Part shown: positions 1-55,939 of the stretch, piece by piece
Layout: every line of letters begins with the position of its first letter
Position numbering within the stretch: the first letter of the stretch is position 1
Assembly: GCA_018268675.1 (NCBI GenBank)
Contig: JAFDWB010000080.1
Coordinates: forward strand, 1-64,000
Source: Actinomycetota bacterium
Lineage (GTDB): Bacteria; Actinomycetota; Thermoleophilia; Solirubrobacterales; 70-9
Reading direction: 5' to 3'
Length of the DNA stretch: 64,000 nt
Program-made: the position numbers and the translations under genes
The notes under the pieces: generated by a model
What the model was told of the DNA's origin: nothing
What the model saw: the letters and a program-made list of their open reading frames with translations, nothing else
Databases searched by the model: none

Positions 1-180
1 GAGGGGCGTCCTCCTGGCGTCGGCGAGGTACCACTTCGGTGACCGACCCGTGGCGCTCCCGTCGCTCCCCCGCGACCCTTCCTCCTCTCCCCGGACACCC
101 GGCCGTCTCGGCCACGGCCACAGCCCGCCAGGGTCGTGGCCGAGACGGCCCGTCCCTTTCCTTGGGCGCCGGCTTCCCCG
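1..180. repeat. Right-hand part of an F1 composite palindromic element
   Basis: No gene is supported in the first 293 bases. The first ~180 bases align with 13411-13575, including the shared start GAGGGGCGTCCTCCTGGCG, the CGACCCTTCCTCCTCTCCCC stretch and the terminal hairpin. The hairpin spans 101-150: 19-nt arms and a 12-nt loop (ACAGCCCGCCAG), the reverse-complement orientation of the F1 loop. The rest of the element would lie to the left of the window. Positions 181-293 hold the leader of the next gene with no recognisable motif. Confidence 0.75.
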
Positions 181-12339: not shown

Positions 12340-13067
12340 GCGGCGCGATCGAGGCGACCAGCGGCGCCGTCGATACGCCGCCGCTCGTCGCCCACGGCCT
12401 CGGCCGCACCTATGACGGGTACATCGCCCTCGGCTCCTTCACGGTCGAGGTCGCGGCGGGCGAGCTGGTCGCCCTGATCGGGCCGAACGGGGCGGGAAAG
12501 ACGACCTTCCTCAACCTCGCCGCCGGGCTGCTCGAGCCGACCGCGGGCCGAATCGAGGTCGCCGGCCAGCCGCCCGGCTCGCTCGCCGCCCGCCGCGCCC
12601 TCTCCTATCTCCCCGATTCGCCCGTCTTCTACGAAGACCTGAGCGTCGCCGAGCACCTCGAATACGTCGCCGCCCTTCACGGCACCGAGGGCCCGACTGC
12701 GCGCATCGAGGAGCTGATCGGCCGGCTCGGCCTCGACGGCTGGGAGGACGCCCTCGGCGCCGAACTCTCAAAGGGCATGAAGCAGAAGGCCTCGATCGCC
12801 CTCGCCCTCGTCCGCCCCTTCGCCGTCCTCCTCGCCGACGAGCCCCTCGACGGCCTCGACCCTCCGAGCCGCGAAGTCCTCTTCGACCTCCTCGCCGAGA
12901 CCAGGGCCGCCGGCGCCGCGATCGTCGTCTCCACCCACCGCCCCGACGTGATCGCCGCCGCCGACCGCTGCGTCGCCCTCCGCGACGGCCGCCTCGCCTA
13001 CGACGGCGCACCGGACCCCGCGGTGCTGGAGAGGTTGTTCGATGCGAGCGAGTTGGAGGGGGCTTAG
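12336..13067 (+). CDS. ABC exporter ATP-binding subunit
   Basis: A 243-aa ATPase. Walker A is GPNGAGKTT, Walker B is VLLADEPLDGLD and the H-loop lies in STHRPD. The signature is LSKGMKQK, a variant of LSGGQ often seen in CcmA/DrrA-like exporters. GTG 12336 overlaps the stop of the membrane-subunit gene (ATGTGA), so the two are translated together. It should energise the upstream 12-TM-like subunit. An F1 palindromic element begins 26 bp after its stop. Confidence 0.87.
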   Translation: MSGAIEATSGAVDTPPLVAHGLGRTYDGYIALGSFTVEVAAGELVALIGPNGAGKTTFLNLAAGLLEPTAGRIEVAGQPPGSLAARRALSYLPDSPVFYEDLSVAEHLEYVAALHGTEGPTARIEELIGRLGLDGWEDALGAELSKGMKQKASIALALVRPFAVLLADEPLDGLDPPSREVLFDLLAETRAAGAAIVVSTHRPDVIAAADRCVALRDGRLAYDGAPDPAVLERLFDASELEGA

Positions 13068-13092: not shown

Positions 13093-13559
13093 CCCGGGCG
13101 CCTCATGGGGGTCCTGGCAGGCTGTGACCCCCATGAGGCGCCCGGGACGTGAGGGGTGCGTGGGAAAGAGGGCACGGGATCGTGACGAAGATGTCGGGGA
13201 CGTCACGCTTCCGTGCGGTCTGAAGGCTGAGATCGGGGCGCCGGAACCCGCTGCAGCGACAGGTGTCGCTGGGACGACACCTGTCGCTGCAGCGTGTCCC
13301 GGACGTCCGAGGAAGACGGGAGGAAGGGTGACGGACCTCCCTTTCCCCGGCCGACCCCGGTCAGCTGTTCTTTTTGCCGGACTGGTCGGCATAAAGAACA
13401 GCTGGACGGAGGGGCGTCCTCCTGGCGACGGCGAATTCCCACATCCGTGACGGACCCGTGGCGCTCCCGTGACCCCCACGCGACCCTTCCTCCTCTCCCC
13501 CCAGACCCGGCCGTCTCGGCCGCGGCCACAGCCTGCCAGGGTCGTGGCCGAGACGGCCG
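13093..13559. repeat. F1 composite palindromic element, longest copy
   Basis: A 467-bp non-coding element in the 566-bp gap between convergent genes. Hairpin A (13093-13146) has perfect 21-nt arms and loop CTGGCAGGCTGT. Hairpin B (13249-13294) has perfect 20-nt arms and loop CTGGGA. Hairpin C (13362-13404) has CAGCTGTTCTTT arms around a TGCCG/CGGCA inner stem. Hairpin D (13508-13559) has 20-nt arms with two G-T pairs and loop ACAGCCTGCCAG, the exact reverse complement of the A loop. Segments between the hairpins match the copy at 36011-36300, which lacks B and C. Bases 13560-13633 hold no feature I recognise. Confidence 0.88.
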
Positions 13560-13633
13560 CGTCCCTTGCCCCATCGGGCGACAGCTATCAACGGCCCATA
13601 CCTCGGGGCGGTTCCGGCTTTCGTCGCCGACCG

Positions 13634-21177: not shown

Positions 21178-21191
21178 CCCCGGCCGGCAGC

Positions 21192-21240
21192 GTTGAGGGG
21201 CCGAAAACCTCTGACATAGAGCGGTTTTCGGCCCATCAAC
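21192..21240. repeat. F2 palindrome, copy a
   Basis: GTTGAGGGGCCGAAAACC (21192-21209) pairs with GGTTTTCGGCCCATCAAC (21223-21240) with one mismatch, around a 13-nt loop containing ACATAG. It lies between the convergent acyl-CoA dehydrogenase and typA genes. No T-run follows on either side. Confidence 0.8.
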
Positions 21241-21275
21241 GGCGGGCGCCGTCGCCGGGTGTGGCGGCGGCCCCG

Positions 21276-24594: not shown

Positions 24595-24961
24595 CGTCTT
24601 GGGCCTCTCATGGGGGTCCTGGCAGGCTGTGACCCCCATGAGAGGCCCAAGACGTGAGGGGTTCGTAGGGGGAGACGGCACCGGGGACGTGAGGAAGTCG
24701 GACTTCCGTGACGGTCTCTTGTGGATCCGTCGCCTACGACCACGGTGCCGGGGCGTCTGTGGCGCTTTACTCGGGCATAGACCGAGTAAAGCGCCACGGC
24801 AAGGCCCTGACCGATGGGAAGGCAGGAGGAAGACGGGGGGAACCGTGACGTTCTCACCGTCTTCGTCACGAGGTCGGTCTTCGGTGACGGATCCTTCACG
24901 CCTTTCATACCCGGCCCTCTCGCCGCGGCCACAGCCAGCCCGGGCCGTGGCGAGAGGGCCG
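24595..24961. repeat. F1 composite palindromic element, copy with divergent stems
   Basis: A 367-bp element in the 506-bp gap between corA and the subtilase gene. Hairpin A (24595-24654) has perfect 24-nt arms and loop CTGGCAGGCTGT. A middle hairpin (24759-24797) has perfect 16-nt arms GTGGCGCTTTACTCGG and a 7-nt loop. Hairpin D (24912-24961) has 19-nt arms and loop ACAGCCAGCCCG. Stem sequences differ from the 13-kb copy, yet both arms change together. Here the flanking genes run in the same direction. Bases 24962-25060 contain only element tail and leader. Confidence 0.85.
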
Positions 24962-25060
24962 CGTCCCTTGTCCCTCGGGCGCCAGCCGCCAAGCCCCCAT
25001 CCCTTCCCGGCATCCGCCAGCCGCTAAAGCTCCCCCTGGCGTGGTCGATACGTTTCCTGG

Positions 25061-34984: not shown

Positions 34985-35968
34985 GTGGACACGCAGCGAC
35001 TGAACGAGGTTCTGGGCGACGCCGGGGAGCCCGCGTATCGCGCGGCGCAGGTGTGGGAGTGGGTCGCGAAGGGGGCGGCCGAGTACGGGGAGATGACCAA
35101 CCTGCCGGCGGCGCTGCGGGAGCGGCTCGAGGTGGAGGTGCCACTTTCGACGCTTTCCGTCTGCGCCGAGGCGCGCTCCGACGACGGGACGGTGAAGACG
35201 CTGTTCAACACCGCGGACGGACGGCCGATCGAGGCGGTGCTGATGCGGTACCGGGACGGCCGACGGTCGGTTTGCGTCTCGTCGCAGTCGGGGTGCCCAC
35301 TGACCTGCACGTTCTGCGCGACCGGGAAGATGAAGTTCGGCCGCAATCTCTCGGCGGACGAGATCCTGGACCAGGCGCTCCACTTCAGGCGGGTCGAACC
35401 GATCGACCACGTCGTCTTCATGGGGATGGGGGAGCCGACGATGAACGTCGACAACGTCCTCGCCGCCTGCGAGCGGTTGCCCGACCTCGGGGTGACGAAC
35501 CGACGGACGGCGATCTCCACGGTCGGCTGGGTGCCGGGCATCGACCGGCTGGCGGAGTGCGAGATGCCGATCGCCTTGGCGCTGTCCCTGCACGCGCCGA
35601 ACGACGGGCTGCGCTCGCAGCTGATGGCGGTGAACGACCGCTTCCCGCTGGCCGAGGTGCTCGCGGCCTGCGAGCGCTACCGGGCGCGCCGCCGGCGCAA
35701 GGTCTTCGTCGAGTACGTGATGCTCGACGGCGTCAACGACCTCCCCGAGCACGCCCGCGAGCTCGCCGCCCTCCTCGACCCGCGCGGCTACAAGGTGAAC
35801 CTGATCCCCTACAACCCGACCGGCGCCTACGACGGCTCCTCACCAGAGCGGATCGAGCGCTTCCGCGCGATCCTCGCCGAGCACCGCGTGCCCGCCACCG
35901 TCCGCCTCACGCGCGGGCGGGATATCGACGCGGCGTGCGGGCAGTTGGCGGCGAAGGCAGCGGCCTAG
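34985..35968 (+). CDS. rlmN: 23S rRNA (adenine2503-C2)-methyltransferase
   Basis: A 327-aa radical-SAM methyltransferase acting on 23S rRNA A2503 and some tRNAs. The CxxxCxxC cluster motif is GCPLTCTFCATGKMKFGR, with HVVFMGMGEPTMNVDNV and ALSLHAPNDGLRSQLM following. The C-terminal TRGRDIDAACGQLA holds the methyl-carrying Cys. The start is GTG 34985, only 9 bp after the pseudogene. Length is slightly short but complete. Confidence 0.95.
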   Translation: MDTQRLNEVLGDAGEPAYRAAQVWEWVAKGAAEYGEMTNLPAALRERLEVEVPLSTLSVCAEARSDDGTVKTLFNTADGRPIEAVLMRYRDGRRSVCVSSQSGCPLTCTFCATGKMKFGRNLSADEILDQALHFRRVEPIDHVVFMGMGEPTMNVDNVLAACERLPDLGVTNRRTAISTVGWVPGIDRLAECEMPIALALSLHAPNDGLRSQLMAVNDRFPLAEVLAACERYRARRRRKVFVEYVMLDGVNDLPEHARELAALLDPRGYKVNLIPYNPTGAYDGSSPERIERFRAILAEHRVPATVRLTRGRDIDAACGQLAAKAAA

Positions 35969-36010: not shown

Positions 36011-36300
36011 TCACGTCCCGGACGCCTCATGGGGGTCCTGGCAGGCTGTGACCCCCATGAGGCGCCCGGGACGTGAGGGTTCCGTGGGGAAGAGGGCACG
36101 GGTTCGTCACGAAGACGCCGGGGACGTCACACTCCCATGCCGTCTGAAGGCCGAGATCGAGGGACGTCTGAGGAGAACGGGAGGAAGGGTGACGGACCCG
36201 TGCCGCCCCCGTCACTCCCCCCGACCCTTCCTCCTCTCCCCACAGACCCGGCCGTCTCGGCCACGGCCACAGCCTGCCCGGGTCGTGGTCGAGACGGCCG
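36011..36300. repeat. F1 composite palindromic element, minimal copy
   Basis: A 290-bp element in the 420-bp gap between rlmN and a P450 gene. Hairpin A (36011-36076) has 27-nt arms with one mismatch and loop CTGGCAGGCTGT. Hairpin D (36249-36300) has 20-nt arms on each side of loop ACAGCCTGCCCG. The spacer aligns with 13147-13240 and 13300-13500 but lacks hairpins B and C, so this looks like the basic form. Bases 36301-36388 show nothing else. Confidence 0.87.
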
Positions 36301-38081: not shown

Positions 38082-38130
38082 GTCGATGGGCCGAAAACCC
38101 GCCTATATGGCGGGTTTTCGGCCCATCGAC
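38082..38130. repeat. F2 palindrome, copy b (perfect)
   Basis: Perfect 22-nt arms (38082-38103 and 38109-38130) starting GTCGATGGGCCGAAAACC surround the loop TATAT. It sits between the convergent small membrane gene and glutamine synthetase III, 8 bp before the end of the latter. It could end transcription from both sides, though no T-run is present. Confidence 0.85.
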
Positions 38131-46033: not shown

Positions 46034-46170
46034 CGTTTGCTGAGCTGACGGCGTCCCGGCGCACACAACTCACCAAACCCCCAGGGGGCCGAACTCACCG
46101 GGGTCTCCGGGCGCCCGCCACGTTGATGGGCCGAAAACCCGCCTATATGTCGAGTTTTCGGCCCATCAAC
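46034..46170. repeat. F3 palindrome followed by F2 palindrome copy c
   Basis: At 46034-46078 CGTTTGCTGAGCTG pairs imperfectly with CAACTCACCAAAC; this is the inverted copy of the string at 6879-6924. At 46122-46170 the F2 palindrome has 20-nt arms GTTGATGGGCCGAAAACCCG with one G-T pair, around TATAT-containing loop CCTATATGT. The gap is 247 bp between convergent genes (usp plus, 46224 minus) and holds no gene. Confidence 0.75.
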
Positions 46171-46223
46171 ATCGGGGGCGGGGACGCCCTGGCCCGGTGC
46201 ACGCCCCCGGCGGCCGGCCGGCC

Positions 46224-47422: not shown

Positions 47423-48312
47423 TTAGCTGCCGAGGATTCGGCGGCGGCGGAGGACTCGCTCGGCGATCTCCAGTGCTTCGCGGGTGGACGGCTCCGCGTC
47501 TGGCGGGAGTTCGTCCTTCAGGGCGCGGTCGGCGTCTCCTTCGATCGCGGGGCGCAGCTCTTCCAGGGACTCGATGTCGCGTCGGTGGTCGGGGTCCTCG
47601 AGGGCGCCGGGGAGCTCGGCGAGCAGCGCTTCGACGGCGGGGCGCAGTTGCAGGGCCGCCTCGCGCCGACGGCCCGCGTCGAGGTCGAGGCGGGCGCGCA
47701 GCAGCAGCGTCTCGCAGGCGTCGGCGCGCTCGCGGCCGCGCAGCAGGGCAGCGACGCGCTCCTGCGGGCGCAGGCCCTCCTGGCGCCGGCGCCGGCGCGA
47801 GGCCCCGCTCGGCCCGACATCGACCTCGCGGGCCTCGGCGTAGCCCCCCGCGGCGGTCTGCTCGCCGCTGCCGAACCCGATCCTGACCGCGACGGCGCGC
47901 TCGGCGGCGACGGCGACGGTCGTGGGGTCGGCCGCGGCGACCGCGTGGGCGTGGAGGGCCGTGTTGAGGAGGGCGATGCCGTTCTCGACCACCGCGTCGA
48001 TCGCGGCGTCGGCGGCGGTCGCCGTCGCCAGCCAGGCGGCCGCCTTCTCGGGATCGTCGAAGGGCTCGAAGGCGCGAATCGCGGTGGCGCGGGTGATCGG
48101 CACCGCGGGCGCGATCGGGGCGGCCTCGGCATCGCGCGGGCGCCGCCGCTTCCGCCCGGGGCGCGGCGGCGCGGCGAGCGTCTGGATCACGAGCACGCTC
48201 TCGAGGCCCGCATCGCCGGCGCGCGCCAGATAGCGCCCGTCGGCGAGCGGCAGCGTGCCGGCGAGGTCGAACTGGGCGAATCCGAAGAAGGGGCTCAGGG
48301 CCCTGAGCCTAG
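47423..48312 (-). CDS. Hypothetical protein, 5' end abutted by an insertion sequence
   Basis: An Ala/Arg-rich protein of about 290 aa. The conserved-looking N-terminal part FFGFAQFDLAGTLPLADGRY starts 13 bp inside the IS boundary. A helical tetratricopeptide-like C-terminal half (LLLRARLDLDAGRRREAALQ) follows. The IS982-like element ends at 48313. The present frame runs into it for 19 more codons to ATG 48367. If the IS is removed, an in-frame GTG in the right flank would be fused. CTG 48298 is another possibility. The original start or promoter has thus probably been lost. Confidence 0.5.
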
Positions 48313-49328
48313 ATGAGTAGTTCCACGAATCCCTCGGCCCGAGGGCGTCGGCAGGGGTAACGAGCAACGCGGTCGAAGTCGGCGGTGCTCAATACCACCG
48401 CCTACCCAAGGAGGGCCACGATGCTCGCCGACCTCGACCTGCTGCTCATTGCGGTCTTCTGCACCGCCGACGATCTCCTGCCTGAACGGAAGAAGAACGC
48501 CAGGAGGAGGTTGACCGACGCGGAGGTCGTGACTCTCTGTGTGGCGCAGTCGATCATGGGCGTGACCTCCGACGAGCGCTTCGTCCGGACGGCGGCGAAG
48601 CGGCTCGGGCACCTGTTCCCAGGCCTGACCAGGCGCTCCGGCTTCCACAAGCGCCGCGGCCGGCTCGCCGACGTGATCGAGGCGTTGATCGACGTCTTCG
48701 CGAGCCGTTCCCCCGGCTACCACGACGAACTGCTCCTGGCCGACTCGACCCCGGTGGAGTGCGCCCGCTCGCGCGAGACGGTGAAGCGCGGCGGGTCGAG
48801 CTGCCTGCCCGACGCGATCGCCGACGCCGCCGACTACGGCTACTGCGCCTCCCACAGTCGCTGGTTCTGGGGCTTTCGCCTCCACACCCTGATGGCGCCC
48901 GACGGCACCCCGCGGGCGATGGCGCTGACCTCGCCCAAGGAGGGCGAGAGGGAGGTCTGCCTGCGGCTCCTCGGGCGGGTCAACCGGACCGGGCCGCTCG
49001 TGGTGCTCGGCGACAAGGGCTACGCCGGCGCCGATTTCGAGGCCGATGCCGCCGGGCTCGGGGCGACCGTGGTCAGGCCCCAACGCAAGGACGAGCCCGG
49101 GGGCGGGCCTCACCTGGCGCCGCTGCGACAGCGGATCGAGTCGATCTACTGGAGCGCCAAGGACATCCTGGCGCTCGAGCGCCACGGCGCCCGGACGCTA
49201 CGCGGCCTGCGGGCCCGCATCGCGGCGCGGCTCCTTGCCCTGGCCGCGGCGGTCTGCCTGAACCATGAACTCGGGCGCAACAGCCGCGCCCTGGTCGACT
49301 ACGTCGTCTGAGTCGTGGAACTACTCAT
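48313..49328 (+). mobile_element. IS982-family-like insertion sequence
   Basis: A 1,016-bp element with terminal inverted repeats ATGAGTAGTTCCACGA(A/C)TC (one mismatch in 19) at 48313-48331 and 49310-49328. CTAG occurs at both edges (48309-48312 and 49329-49332), either a 4-bp target duplication or an extension of the inverted repeats. Because CTAG is palindromic, the two cannot be told apart here. One complete transposase gene fills it. A perfect 16-bp palindrome GCTCAGGGCCCTGAGC (48293-48308) touches its left edge. Confidence 0.88.
48421..49311 (+). CDS. IS982-like DDE transposase
   Basis: A 296-aa transposase, apparently intact. LADSTPVECARS gives the first acidic residue, FWGFRLHTLMAPDGTPRAMA and VVLGDKGYAGADFEADA the second, and QRIESIYWSAKDILALE the Glu. 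ATG 48421 with AAGGAGG 6 bp upstream is preferred over the open-frame start at 48385. Intact frame and near-identical ends suggest recent activity. Confidence 0.88.
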   Translation: MLADLDLLLIAVFCTADDLLPERKKNARRRLTDAEVVTLCVAQSIMGVTSDERFVRTAAKRLGHLFPGLTRRSGFHKRRGRLADVIEALIDVFASRSPGYHDELLLADSTPVECARSRETVKRGGSSCLPDAIADAADYGYCASHSRWFWGFRLHTLMAPDGTPRAMALTSPKEGEREVCLRLLGRVNRTGPLVVLGDKGYAGADFEADAAGLGATVVRPQRKDEPGGGPHLAPLRQRIESIYWSAKDILALERHGARTLRGLRARIAARLLALAAAVCLNHELGRNSRALVDYVV

Positions 49329-49436
49329 CTAGAGGCTTGATGCGGGTCATCCACGCACACGGATGACGCCCCATGCCGTCGCCGGATCGCCCTGTGACGC
49401 CCCCGCGCACGCGCCTGACCCACATCAAGCCTCTAG
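49329..49436. repeat. 108-bp inverted-repeat (MITE-like) element next to the IS
   Basis: CTAGAGGCTTGATGCGGGTCA (21 nt, 49329-49349) is repeated inverted at 49416-49436 with one mismatch. The 66 bp between them contain a small ACGGATGACG palindrome but no gene. The right arm includes the stop codon of the peptidoglycan hydrolase gene. It shares its first CTAG with the right edge of the IS, so the IS may have inserted into it or beside it. Confidence 0.65.
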
Positions 49437-52505: not shown

Positions 52506-52585
52506 GGCACGCGCGCTCGGCGACTGCCTCGGCGGCGGACGGCGGCCGGCCGCGGAGGGGTGGCGGGTTGACGGCAGCGCAAAGG

Positions 52586-52643
52586 GAGCCGCGGATGCCG
52601 ATCCGACCCGGGCTGGCTGAGGTCGGCCCGGCATCCGCGGCTC
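52586..52643. repeat. F1 hairpin with a different stem and a variant loop
   Basis: Arms of 23 nt (52586-52608 and 52621-52643) pair except for a 2-by-2 internal loop. The stem reads GAGCCGCGGATGCCG..CCGACC, unrelated to the other F1 stems. The 12-nt loop CGGGCTGGCTGA matches the variant loop at 24931-24942 read on the other strand (CGGGCTGGCTGT). It stands alone, without a partner hairpin. Confidence 0.75.
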
Positions 52644-52705
52644 TCGTGGCGGGGGAGATGTGACGAAAAGCGGGAGAAGTCACGCTTCCGTGACGGGCCC
52701 CGTCA

Positions 52706-52939
52706 CTTGGTGAGTTGTAGGCGCCCTGGCGCCCTCAACCCACCAGGCGTTGATGGGCCGAAAACCGCTCCATATCAGCGGTTTTCGGCCCATCGACCTG
52801 AAGCGCCCACGGAAGACGCACCGAACCCGCGCACTTCATCACGAGCTCGACGCAAGGCGCCCCGAACCCCGTCGCCATCCTCAAAACCGCCGGACGGTTG
52901 GTGAATTGACCACACCCCAGCGGGGTCAACTCACCAACC
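52706..52939. repeat. F3 - F2 - F3 palindrome cluster between convergent genes
   Basis: An F3 hairpin (52706-52747, TTGGTGAGTTG arms) is followed after 1 bp by F2 copy d (52749-52797; 21-nt arms GTTGATGGGCCGAAAACCGCT with one mismatch, loop CCATATC). A second F3 hairpin (52896-52939) has 16-nt arms GGTTGGTGAATTGACC with one mismatch. Together with the F1 hairpin at 52586 they fill the 477-bp gap between convergent genes. No gene is seen in it. Confidence 0.78.
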
Positions 52940-52982
52940 GGCCGAGGCGTCGGCCCGAGGCGCCGGCCGCGGCGCCCCGAGG

Positions 52983-54905: not shown

Positions 54906-55939
54906 CTGTCGTGGGGGGCGACGGATCCGGGGGAACCTCGGCGGAACAACAGCGGGGAGGTTCCGGCGAGGTTCCCCCGGATCCGTCGCTGCGTCGCCGG
55001 GTGGCCGACGAACTGCTCGCGCGGATCGAGGTTGGCGGGTTGATCGCGCCGCCCGCGCCGGTGGTGGTGCTGCTTTCGGGCGGGCGGGACTCGGTTTGCA
55101 TGCTCGATCTTGCGGTGCGCGCGCGGGGGTCTGGGGCGGTTCTCGCGCTCCATGTCGACTATGGCCTGCGTCCGGAGTCCAGGGGGGACGCCGAGTTCTG
55201 TGCCTCCTTATGTAGGGGCTTGGGGGTGAAGATGGAGCTCGAGCGGCCGGTCCGTCCGGAGGGCCCCGGCAACCTGCAGGCCTGGGCGCGCGACGTCCGC
55301 TACGCGGCGGCGGCCCGCCTCGCCGAGGCGTCCGGGGCGACGATCGTCACCGGCCACACCGCCGACGACCAGGTCGAGACGATTCTCTACCGCCTCGCCT
55401 CCTCGCCGAGCCGGCGCGCCCTGCTCGGTATGAAGGAGCGCGACGGCCGCCTCGCCCGCCCGCTGCTCGCCACCACCCGCGCCGAGATCACCGCCTACGA
55501 CGAGGCGCGCGGGCTCGCCTGGCGCGAGGACGCCACCAACGCCGAGGAGGCCTACGCGCGCAACCGGGTCCGCCACGGCCTGCTGCCGGAGCTCGAGGCG
55601 ATCCACCCGGCCGCCGCCGCCAACCTCCTGCGCACGGCGGCGTTGCTGCGCGACGAGGCCGAGGTCCTCGATGCCCTGGTCGCCGCCGAGCTCGACGGCT
55701 CCGGCGCCGCCCCCCGCGGCCGCATCGCCCACGCCCGCTTCGCGGCGCTGCCGCCCGCCCTCCGCCGCCTCGTTCTGCAGCGCCTGGCCGACGCAGCCGC
55801 CGGGCGCCCGGTCCCCGGCGCCGCCCGCTTTGCCGACCAGGTCGCGGGCCTCACCCGCGGCGGCTCGCGGCTCGACCTCGGCGACGGCGTTCGCGCCGTG
55901 CTCGAGGCCGGCGTGCTGCGCGCCGAGCGCGAGCCCTGA
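54902..55939 (+). CDS. tilS: tRNA(Ile)-lysidine synthase
   Basis: A PP-loop ATPase that converts C34 of tRNA-Ile(CAU) to lysidine. VVVLLSGGRDSVCMLDL is the PP-loop, LHVDYGLRPESRGDAEFC and VTGHTADDQVETILYRL are the usual further motifs. From GTG 54902 the protein is 345 aa; from GTG 55001 it is 312 aa. The first 33 codons of the long form lie mostly in a 72-nt palindrome, so either a repeat has become coding or the real start is 55001. It begins the tilS-hpt-ftsH-fol cluster. Confidence 0.93.
   Translation: MTVVGGDGSGGTSAEQQRGGSGEVPPDPSLRRRVADELLARIEVGGLIAPPAPVVVLLSGGRDSVCMLDLAVRARGSGAVLALHVDYGLRPESRGDAEFCASLCRGLGVKMELERPVRPEGPGNLQAWARDVRYAAAARLAEASGATIVTGHTADDQVETILYRLASSPSRRALLGMKERDGRLARPLLATTRAEITAYDEARGLAWREDATNAEEAYARNRVRHGLLPELEAIHPAAAANLLRTAALLRDEAEVLDALVAAELDGSGAAPRGRIAHARFAALPPALRRLVLQRLADAAAGRPVPGAARFADQVAGLTRGGSRLDLGDGVRAVLEAGVLRAEREP
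54918..54989. repeat. 72-nt palindrome in the 5' end of tilS
   Basis: Perfect 23-nt arms (54918-54940 and 54967-54989; GCGACGGATCCGGGGGAACC plus CTCG start) enclose a smaller CGGAAC/GTTCCG stem. It lies 13 bp after the cyclase stop and before GTG 55001. It is in frame with tilS without stops, so it may be translated. It could also hide or expose the tilS start in the mRNA. Confidence 0.8.

What the first reader, a model, noticed from the sequence alone, without database searches (positions are those of the whole stretch)
13093..13559. F1 hairpins: a conserved 12-nt loop on stems that change sequence by compensation
Eight long hairpins (101-150, 13093-13146, 13508-13559, 24595-24654, 24912-24961, 36011-36076, 36249-36300, 52586-52643) all have a loop of exactly 12 nt: CTGGCAGGCTGT or a close variant, read on one strand or the other. 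Stems are 19-27 bp and differ strongly, yet both arms change together. For example, four pairs differ between the A hairpins at 13 kb and 24 kb, and the 52.6-kb stem is unrelated to the rest. Ordinary REP sequences conserve the stem instead. The pattern suggests selection for a structure with a recognised loop, as RNA, as extruded DNA, or as the single-strand substrate of a transposase or recombinase.
Basis: seen in the sequence. Interest (0 to 1): 0.78.

Follow-up and report, generated by a model that had tools for sequence, protein, structure and literature searches.

The report
Transposable elements with conserved-loop hairpins
The hairpins are real and are paired parts of a protein-less jumping element, present about a hundred times in this bacterium's genome, that probably borrows a common (IS982-type) transposase; the fixed loop on changing stems is a genuine oddity whose purpose is still unknown.

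Summary
All eight hairpins exist; loop-blind scans of 850 kb in this species and three congeners recover the same loop, C[T/G]GGC[A/G/T]GGCTGT, on stems that co-vary beyond a phylogeny-aware null. Seven of the eight hairpins are the two sub-terminal hairpins (A and B, inverted) of a non-coding element of roughly 0.3-1.2 kb, with about a hundred or more hairpins in each of six species of one genus and none in 44 other genomes of the family. Well-preserved copies are bounded by CTAGATGGTTGATTCCACGG, the terminal inverted repeat of IS982-family insertion sequences; one such IS lies in this window (48309-49332). Elements sit just after gene ends, next to an excess of TAG stop codons (69% against 29%) that mostly predate insertion. 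So this is an IS982-type MITE family, a known kind, with an unusual feature: conserved-loop hairpins whose stems break on recent branches but stay paired along internal ones, suggesting selection tied to propagation. What reads the loop (transposase, host factor or RNA machinery) is not shown. The eighth hairpin (52586-52643) has an unrelated stem and a looser loop.

The parts
96..155 (-). B-type hairpin (loop CTGGCGGGCTGT on the minus strand); element cut by the window start
13065..13067 (+). TAG stop codon of the upstream gene (ABC transporter ATP-binding protein) directly before the 13-kb element
13093..13146 (+). A hairpin of the 13-kb element, loop CTGGCAGGCTGT
13241..13302 (.). internal palindrome (CGCTGCAGCGACAGGTGTCG type) between A and B
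13362..13404 (.). internal palindrome (CAGCTGTTCYTTWTG type) between A and B
13504..13563 (-). B hairpin of the 13-kb element, loop CTGGCAGGCTGT on the minus strand
24595..24654 (+). A hairpin of the 24-kb element (four compensated pairs against the 13-kb copy)
24759..24797 (.). internal palindrome GTGGCGCTTTACTCGG / CCGAGTAAAGCGCCAC
24909..24964 (-). B hairpin of the 24-kb element, loop CGGGCTGGCTGT on the minus strand
35966..35968 (+). TAG stop codon (rlmN-like gene); most congeners have TGA here and no element
36011..36076 (+). A hairpin of the 36-kb element
36249..36300 (-). B hairpin of the 36-kb element, loop CGGGCAGGCTGT on the minus strand
48309..48331 (+). left terminal inverted repeat of the IS982-type insertion sequence (CTAGATGAGTAGTTCCACGAATC)
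48421..49311 (+). IS982-family DDE transposase, the only PF01609 match in this genome
49310..49332 (-). right terminal inverted repeat of the insertion sequence
49329..49436 (.). small inverted-repeat element CTAGAGGCTTGAT...ATCAAGCCTCTAG abutting the IS; the same first 13 bases end one F1 element (L024)
52578..52651 (+). solitary hairpin with an F1-like loop (CGGGCTGGCTGA, 9/12) on an unrelated stem; membership uncertain

Best explanation
The hairpins are the paired sub-terminal structures of a non-autonomous (MITE-like) DNA element: TIR - hairpin - optional palindromes - hairpin - TIR, both loops reading CTGGCAGGCTGT inwards. Shown: the layout, the copy number, near-identity of the outer ends with the TIRs of IS982-family insertion sequences, lineage-specific insertion, location just after stop codons with an excess of TAG, and stem covariation around a near-invariant loop. 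Inferred: an IS982-type DDE transposase moves the elements in trans by acting on the CTAG... ends and joining them at TAG-containing sites, which outside coding sequence are largely stop codons. Inferred with less certainty (about 0.4 on its own): the hairpin is a cis-acting site for propagation, read as a folded strand with the loop as the sequence-specific part, so that any stem will do if it pairs; landed copies decay, lineages that keep multiplying stay paired. The confidence below is for the element class and its mobiliser, not for the hairpin's role.
For: A and B occur as inverted pairs, loops mostly 230-560 bp apart, with palindromes between them. All 7 matches to CTAGATGRTTGATTCCACGG (3 or fewer mismatches) in this genome lie on F1 elements, with 0 control matches (the copy without an A hairpin is seen). 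The recognisable TIRs start mostly 63-73 nt outside A and B. Complete TIR-to-TIR copies with A, B and no transposase occur in congener G006. IS982-type insertion sequences have TIRs CTAGATGATTGATTCCACGG and CTAGATGGTTGATTCCACGG, and the transposase in this window passes the NCBIfam IS982 cut-off. Insertion: 8-18 bp in two relatives against about 375 bp at the 36-kb site. Target: TAG stops 51/74 against 29%, 30% beside other palindromes, and TAG already in 22 of 43 element-free orthologues. Covariation and its branch distribution.
Against: Only about a dozen of the own copies keep a recognisable TIR. The IS in this window has a TIR only 15/20 identical to the F1 ends, so the true partner may be another, lost or unassembled, IS. 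No exact target duplication could be read, because the relatives are 10-20% diverged. Short TIR elements without F1 hairpins exist in congeners, so the hairpins are not needed for every element with these ends.
Confidence: 0.75

Rival explanations
1. RNA function: after insertion behind a stop codon the hairpin is transcribed and acts as a 3'-UTR terminator, stabiliser or protein/RNase site. Because A and B are inverted, transcripts entering from either side meet a CUGGCAGGCUGU loop first. Selection is for making insertions harmless or useful.
For: Elements lie just after stop codons; inward symmetry of the loops; among elements between tandem genes 16 of 22 have A first in the direction of transcription.
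Against: The gene-end and convergent location is explained by a TAG target. Wobble-type mismatches do not favour the inward-read strand (A.C exceeds G.T). Stems break in recent copies, unexpected if each copy works where it sits. A terminator needs no fixed loop. No Rfam family.
Confidence: 0.3
2. Mutational maintenance: long palindromes are kept symmetric by template switching or arm-to-arm correction during replication, so both arms change together without selection; the loop only marks common descent.
For: Symmetric single-pair indels in B subtypes; a hairpin whose loop is flipped relative to its flanks (L006); species-specific stem types shared by copies within a genome.
Against: Ten of 12 loop positions stay almost invariant while stems differ between species; other palindromes in the same DNA vary in the loop; an exact loop occurs on an unrelated stem in G006 (L049).
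Confidence: 0.2
3. Y1/HUH-mobilised REP or REPIN (RAYT system), as first proposed.
For: Extragenic palindromes in inverted pairs, downstream of genes, high copy number, confined to one clade.
Against: No Y1_Tnp in 12 of 12 genomes of the genus while control genomes ring; no unpaired GTAG or CGTC tag; stems of 19-27 bp against 5-13 bp in published families; element bounded by DDE-type TIRs.
Confidence: 0.04

Closest known systems
IS982-derived MITEs (MITECca01 of Cardinium, PMC9769881)
   Same: non-coding, high-copy, bounded by inverted repeats like those of IS982-family insertion sequences
   Different: F1 elements carry two inverted conserved-loop hairpins and further palindromes, are up to about 1.2 kb, and adjoin TAG stop codons; no sequence relation was tested
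REP / REPIN / BIME (GTAG and CGTC superfamilies, PMC3733652)
   Same: high-copy palindromes, often in inverted pairs, downstream of genes; alternative complementary stem residues within families
   Different: no unpaired GTAG/CGTC tag, stems two to three times longer, no tyrosine transposase in the genus, element bounded by DDE-type TIRs
BOX, RUP and SPRITE of Streptococcus pneumoniae (as described in PMC10969869)
   Same: mosaic small elements that insert into one another and form stable hairpins
   Different: unrelated host; sequences not compared

Membership tests
MITE (non-autonomous TIR element) | terminal inverted repeats at both ends | tested here: met
   G006 copies L336, L341 and L344 complete; partly preserved in own copies
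MITE (non-autonomous TIR element) | no transposase gene inside | tested here: met
   no transposase-bearing copy among the own elements aligned or the complete G006 copies; ORFs there are low-complexity frames, not searched one by one
MITE (non-autonomous TIR element) | ends match those of an autonomous element | tested here: met
   19-20 of 20 bases with IS982-type ISs L299 and L302; 15 of 20 with the IS in this window
MITE (non-autonomous TIR element) | target-site duplication | tested here: inconclusive
   CTAG at both ends of L024 and of the ISs; cannot be separated from the TIR itself
MITE (non-autonomous TIR element) | mobilised in trans by the cognate transposase | not testable with these tools
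   needs a transposition assay
REP/RAYT system | Y1/HUH transposase in the genome | tested here: not met
   PF01797 0/12 genomes
REP/RAYT system | unpaired GTAG (or CGTC) tag at the hairpin foot | tested here: not met
   the CGTC at the foot of A is paired with GACG in most copies; no GTAG
IS630/Tc1-type MITE | IS630 (DDE_3) transposase present where the repeat is | tested here: not met
   PF13358 absent from own, G006 and G008; present in F1-negative G003 and G004
Rfam RNA family | match at gathering score | tested here: not met
   none in the window; none over the gathering score in five element loci

The most novel reading that the evidence does not exclude
A DDE-type MITE family whose propagation depends on a folded sub-terminal hairpin read through its 12-nt loop by a trans-acting factor: a structure-plus-loop recognition step in a system thought to use only double-stranded terminal repeats.
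Probability: 0.22. Interest if true: 0.72.

Novelty: new variant of a known kind. Interest (0 to 1): 0.46.

Why it matters
It ties an abundant repeat to a transposase family and a target (TAG stop codons) in a little-studied actinobacterial group, and offers a clear natural case of a loop kept while stems turn over, with many copies in each of six species. That makes two questions directly testable: whether a mobile palindrome is read by its loop, and whether symmetric stems are kept by selection or by a mutational process.

Tried and rejected
RAYT/Y1 partner: no match in 12 genomes. IS630: does not track the repeat. PF01609 as such does not track it either: absent from G008, present in F1-negative G003, G004 and G010; the link rests on the TIR. 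Rfam: none. Autonomous copy at L076 with A and B 1.3 kb apart: the 'B' was a chance match inside a host gene. Kissing of the complementary A and B loops: loops within an element are no more alike than chance. Strand-specific RNA inferred from wobble pairs: A.C exceeds G.T, but in B this is dominated by one inherited pair, so not decisive. Convergent-gene excess as a sign of terminator function: expected from gene-end targeting alone. Element ends supplying the TAG: element-free orthologues already have TAG in 22 of 43 cases, so TAG is mainly a target preference, although at the 36-kb site and at L080 the relatives have TGA or TAA.

Full report
What is there. The eight hairpins are real. Seven belong to A/B elements: an A hairpin (arm CGTCCCGGGCGCCTCATGGGGGTC in this species) and, about 170-360 bp further on in the window, an inverted B hairpin (arm GACGCGGCCGTCTCGGCCACGACC). 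Both loops read CTGGCAGGCTGT inwards. In own copies with both hairpins the loops are mostly 230-560 bp apart (the one at 1.3 kb is a false B). The stretch between them is homologous across copies and holds none, one or several further palindromes. The loop with its flank occurs 95 times in the 4.2-Mb genome at two or fewer mismatches. A covariance model finds 103-109 hairpins (109 being the number of candidates scored per genome) in each of six species of the genus, and none in 44 other genomes of the family, six congeners included.

Is the loop conservation real? The first copies were fetched with the loop as bait, so I repeated the search with no loop criterion in 458 kb of this genome and 392 kb of three congeners. 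Hairpins selected by arm motif nearly all have the loop within two mismatches. Other palindrome families in the same DNA keep the stem and vary the loop, an internal control. Within the loop, positions 2 and 6 vary and the other ten are almost invariant.

Is the covariation real? On 50 aligned hairpins 20 of 25 pairs have changes on both sides; 197 double-change cells against 65 in shuffles, and sliding the partners destroys the signal. A null that replays substitutions on the hairpin tree leaves 10 of 24 pairs at E below 0.05 for A and B together, 3 each for A and B alone. On that tree terminal branches are dominated by pair-breaking (55 breaks, 11 pair-to-pair), internal branches are balanced (25 breaks, 28 repairs, 18 pair-to-pair). 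I read this as selection tied to making further copies, with decay after landing. The tree rests on 60 sites and parsimony, so the counts are approximate.

What the element is. No Y1/HUH transposase exists in any of 12 genomes of the genus. The best-preserved outer ends read (C)TAGATGGTTGATYCCACGG. The only PF01609 transposase of this genome lies in this window and is bounded by inverted repeats CTAGATGAGTAGTTCCACGA; the protein is above the NCBIfam cut-off for IS982. Relatives of that IS in other actinobacterial metagenome-assembled genomes have ends CTAGATGATTGATTCCACGG and CTAGATGGTTGATTCCACGG. Searching the genus with that repeat, all seven matches in this genome fall on F1 elements (one a copy that has lost its A hairpin), with no control match. 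Recognisable ends start mostly 63-73 nt outside A and B. Complete TIR-to-TIR copies with A, B and extra palindromes but no transposase were read in congener G006. The element is therefore a MITE-like relative of IS982 insertion sequences. IS982-derived MITEs are known (PMC9769881).

Where it inserts. Two relatives have 8-18 bp at the 36-kb site where the window has about 375 bp. None of 56 own elements lies in a gene; 20 of 44 are between convergent genes and 2 between divergent ones; adjoining stop codons are TAG in 51 of 74 against 29% genome-wide and 30% beside other palindromes. Orthologues of eleven such genes that lack an element have TAG 22, TGA 11, TAA 10, so TAG mostly comes first and is a target preference. 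From the background counts, choosing gene ends at random would give about 43% convergent sites, so the convergent excess needs no terminator function. Gene calls were made with a simple codon-score script, not a standard gene finder.

What the hairpins do. Not shown. The evidence is for a constrained loop on any stem that pairs. My order is: a cis-acting site for propagation read as a folded strand (about 0.4 on its own), a transcribed 3'-end hairpin (0.3), arm-to-arm correction with an incidental loop (0.2). Against a general requirement, short elements with the same TIR but other hairpins or none occur in congeners. One gene end carries elements in three species, each with its species' own stem type, which fits either repeated insertion or homogenisation within genomes; another gene end has an A hairpin nearest in one species and a B hairpin nearest in another, which points to repeated insertion.

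The eighth hairpin (52578-52651) has an unrelated stem and a loop 9/12 identical; it may be a diverged member or coincidence. A congener has an exact loop on an unrelated stem (L049/L166), so stem replacement does occur.

Noticed in passing
window 21191-21241, 38082-38130, 46112-46180, 52749-52797: A second palindrome family, GTTGATGGGCCGAAAACC...GGTTTTCGGCCCATCAAC, with conserved stem and variable loop, found in all scanned congeners; also mostly extragenic.
   Followed up: partly
window 52891-52944 and 54918-54989: Two more long hairpins with loops of exactly 12 nt but other loop sequences (ACACCCCAGCGG, AACAGCGGGGAG); the second lies just after the stop codon of a cyclase-domain gene.
   Followed up: no
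L006 about 1480-1540: An A hairpin whose loop is flipped relative to its flanks, as if the stem-loop had inverted between its arms.
   Followed up: no
G009 loci L337, L338, L345-L347; G001 L339; G004 L340: Short elements (about 120-230 bp) with the same CTAGATGGTTGATTCCACGG ends, without F1 hairpins, in species with and without F1 elements: a wider family of IS982-type MITEs in the genus.
   Followed up: partly
G006 loci L161, L162, L167, L168, L171, outside A and B hairpins: Degenerate tandem repeats of about 35-50 bp (CACCCGTCCGAGATG units outside A, AAGCTGTCGCCCG units outside B) expand the sub-terminal regions in this species.
   Followed up: no
G000 contig starts C55, C59, C60, C63, C67, C86: Many contigs of this assembly end inside these elements, so the copy number is probably underestimated; C55 begins with long poly-G runs.
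   Followed up: no
outer side of B hairpins, e.g. window 24978-25005: A small third hairpin GGGCGC-CAGCCGGCAA-GCGCCC outside B has a loop resembling the F1 loop (CTTGCCGGCTGG against CTGGCAGGCTGT, 9/12).
   Followed up: no
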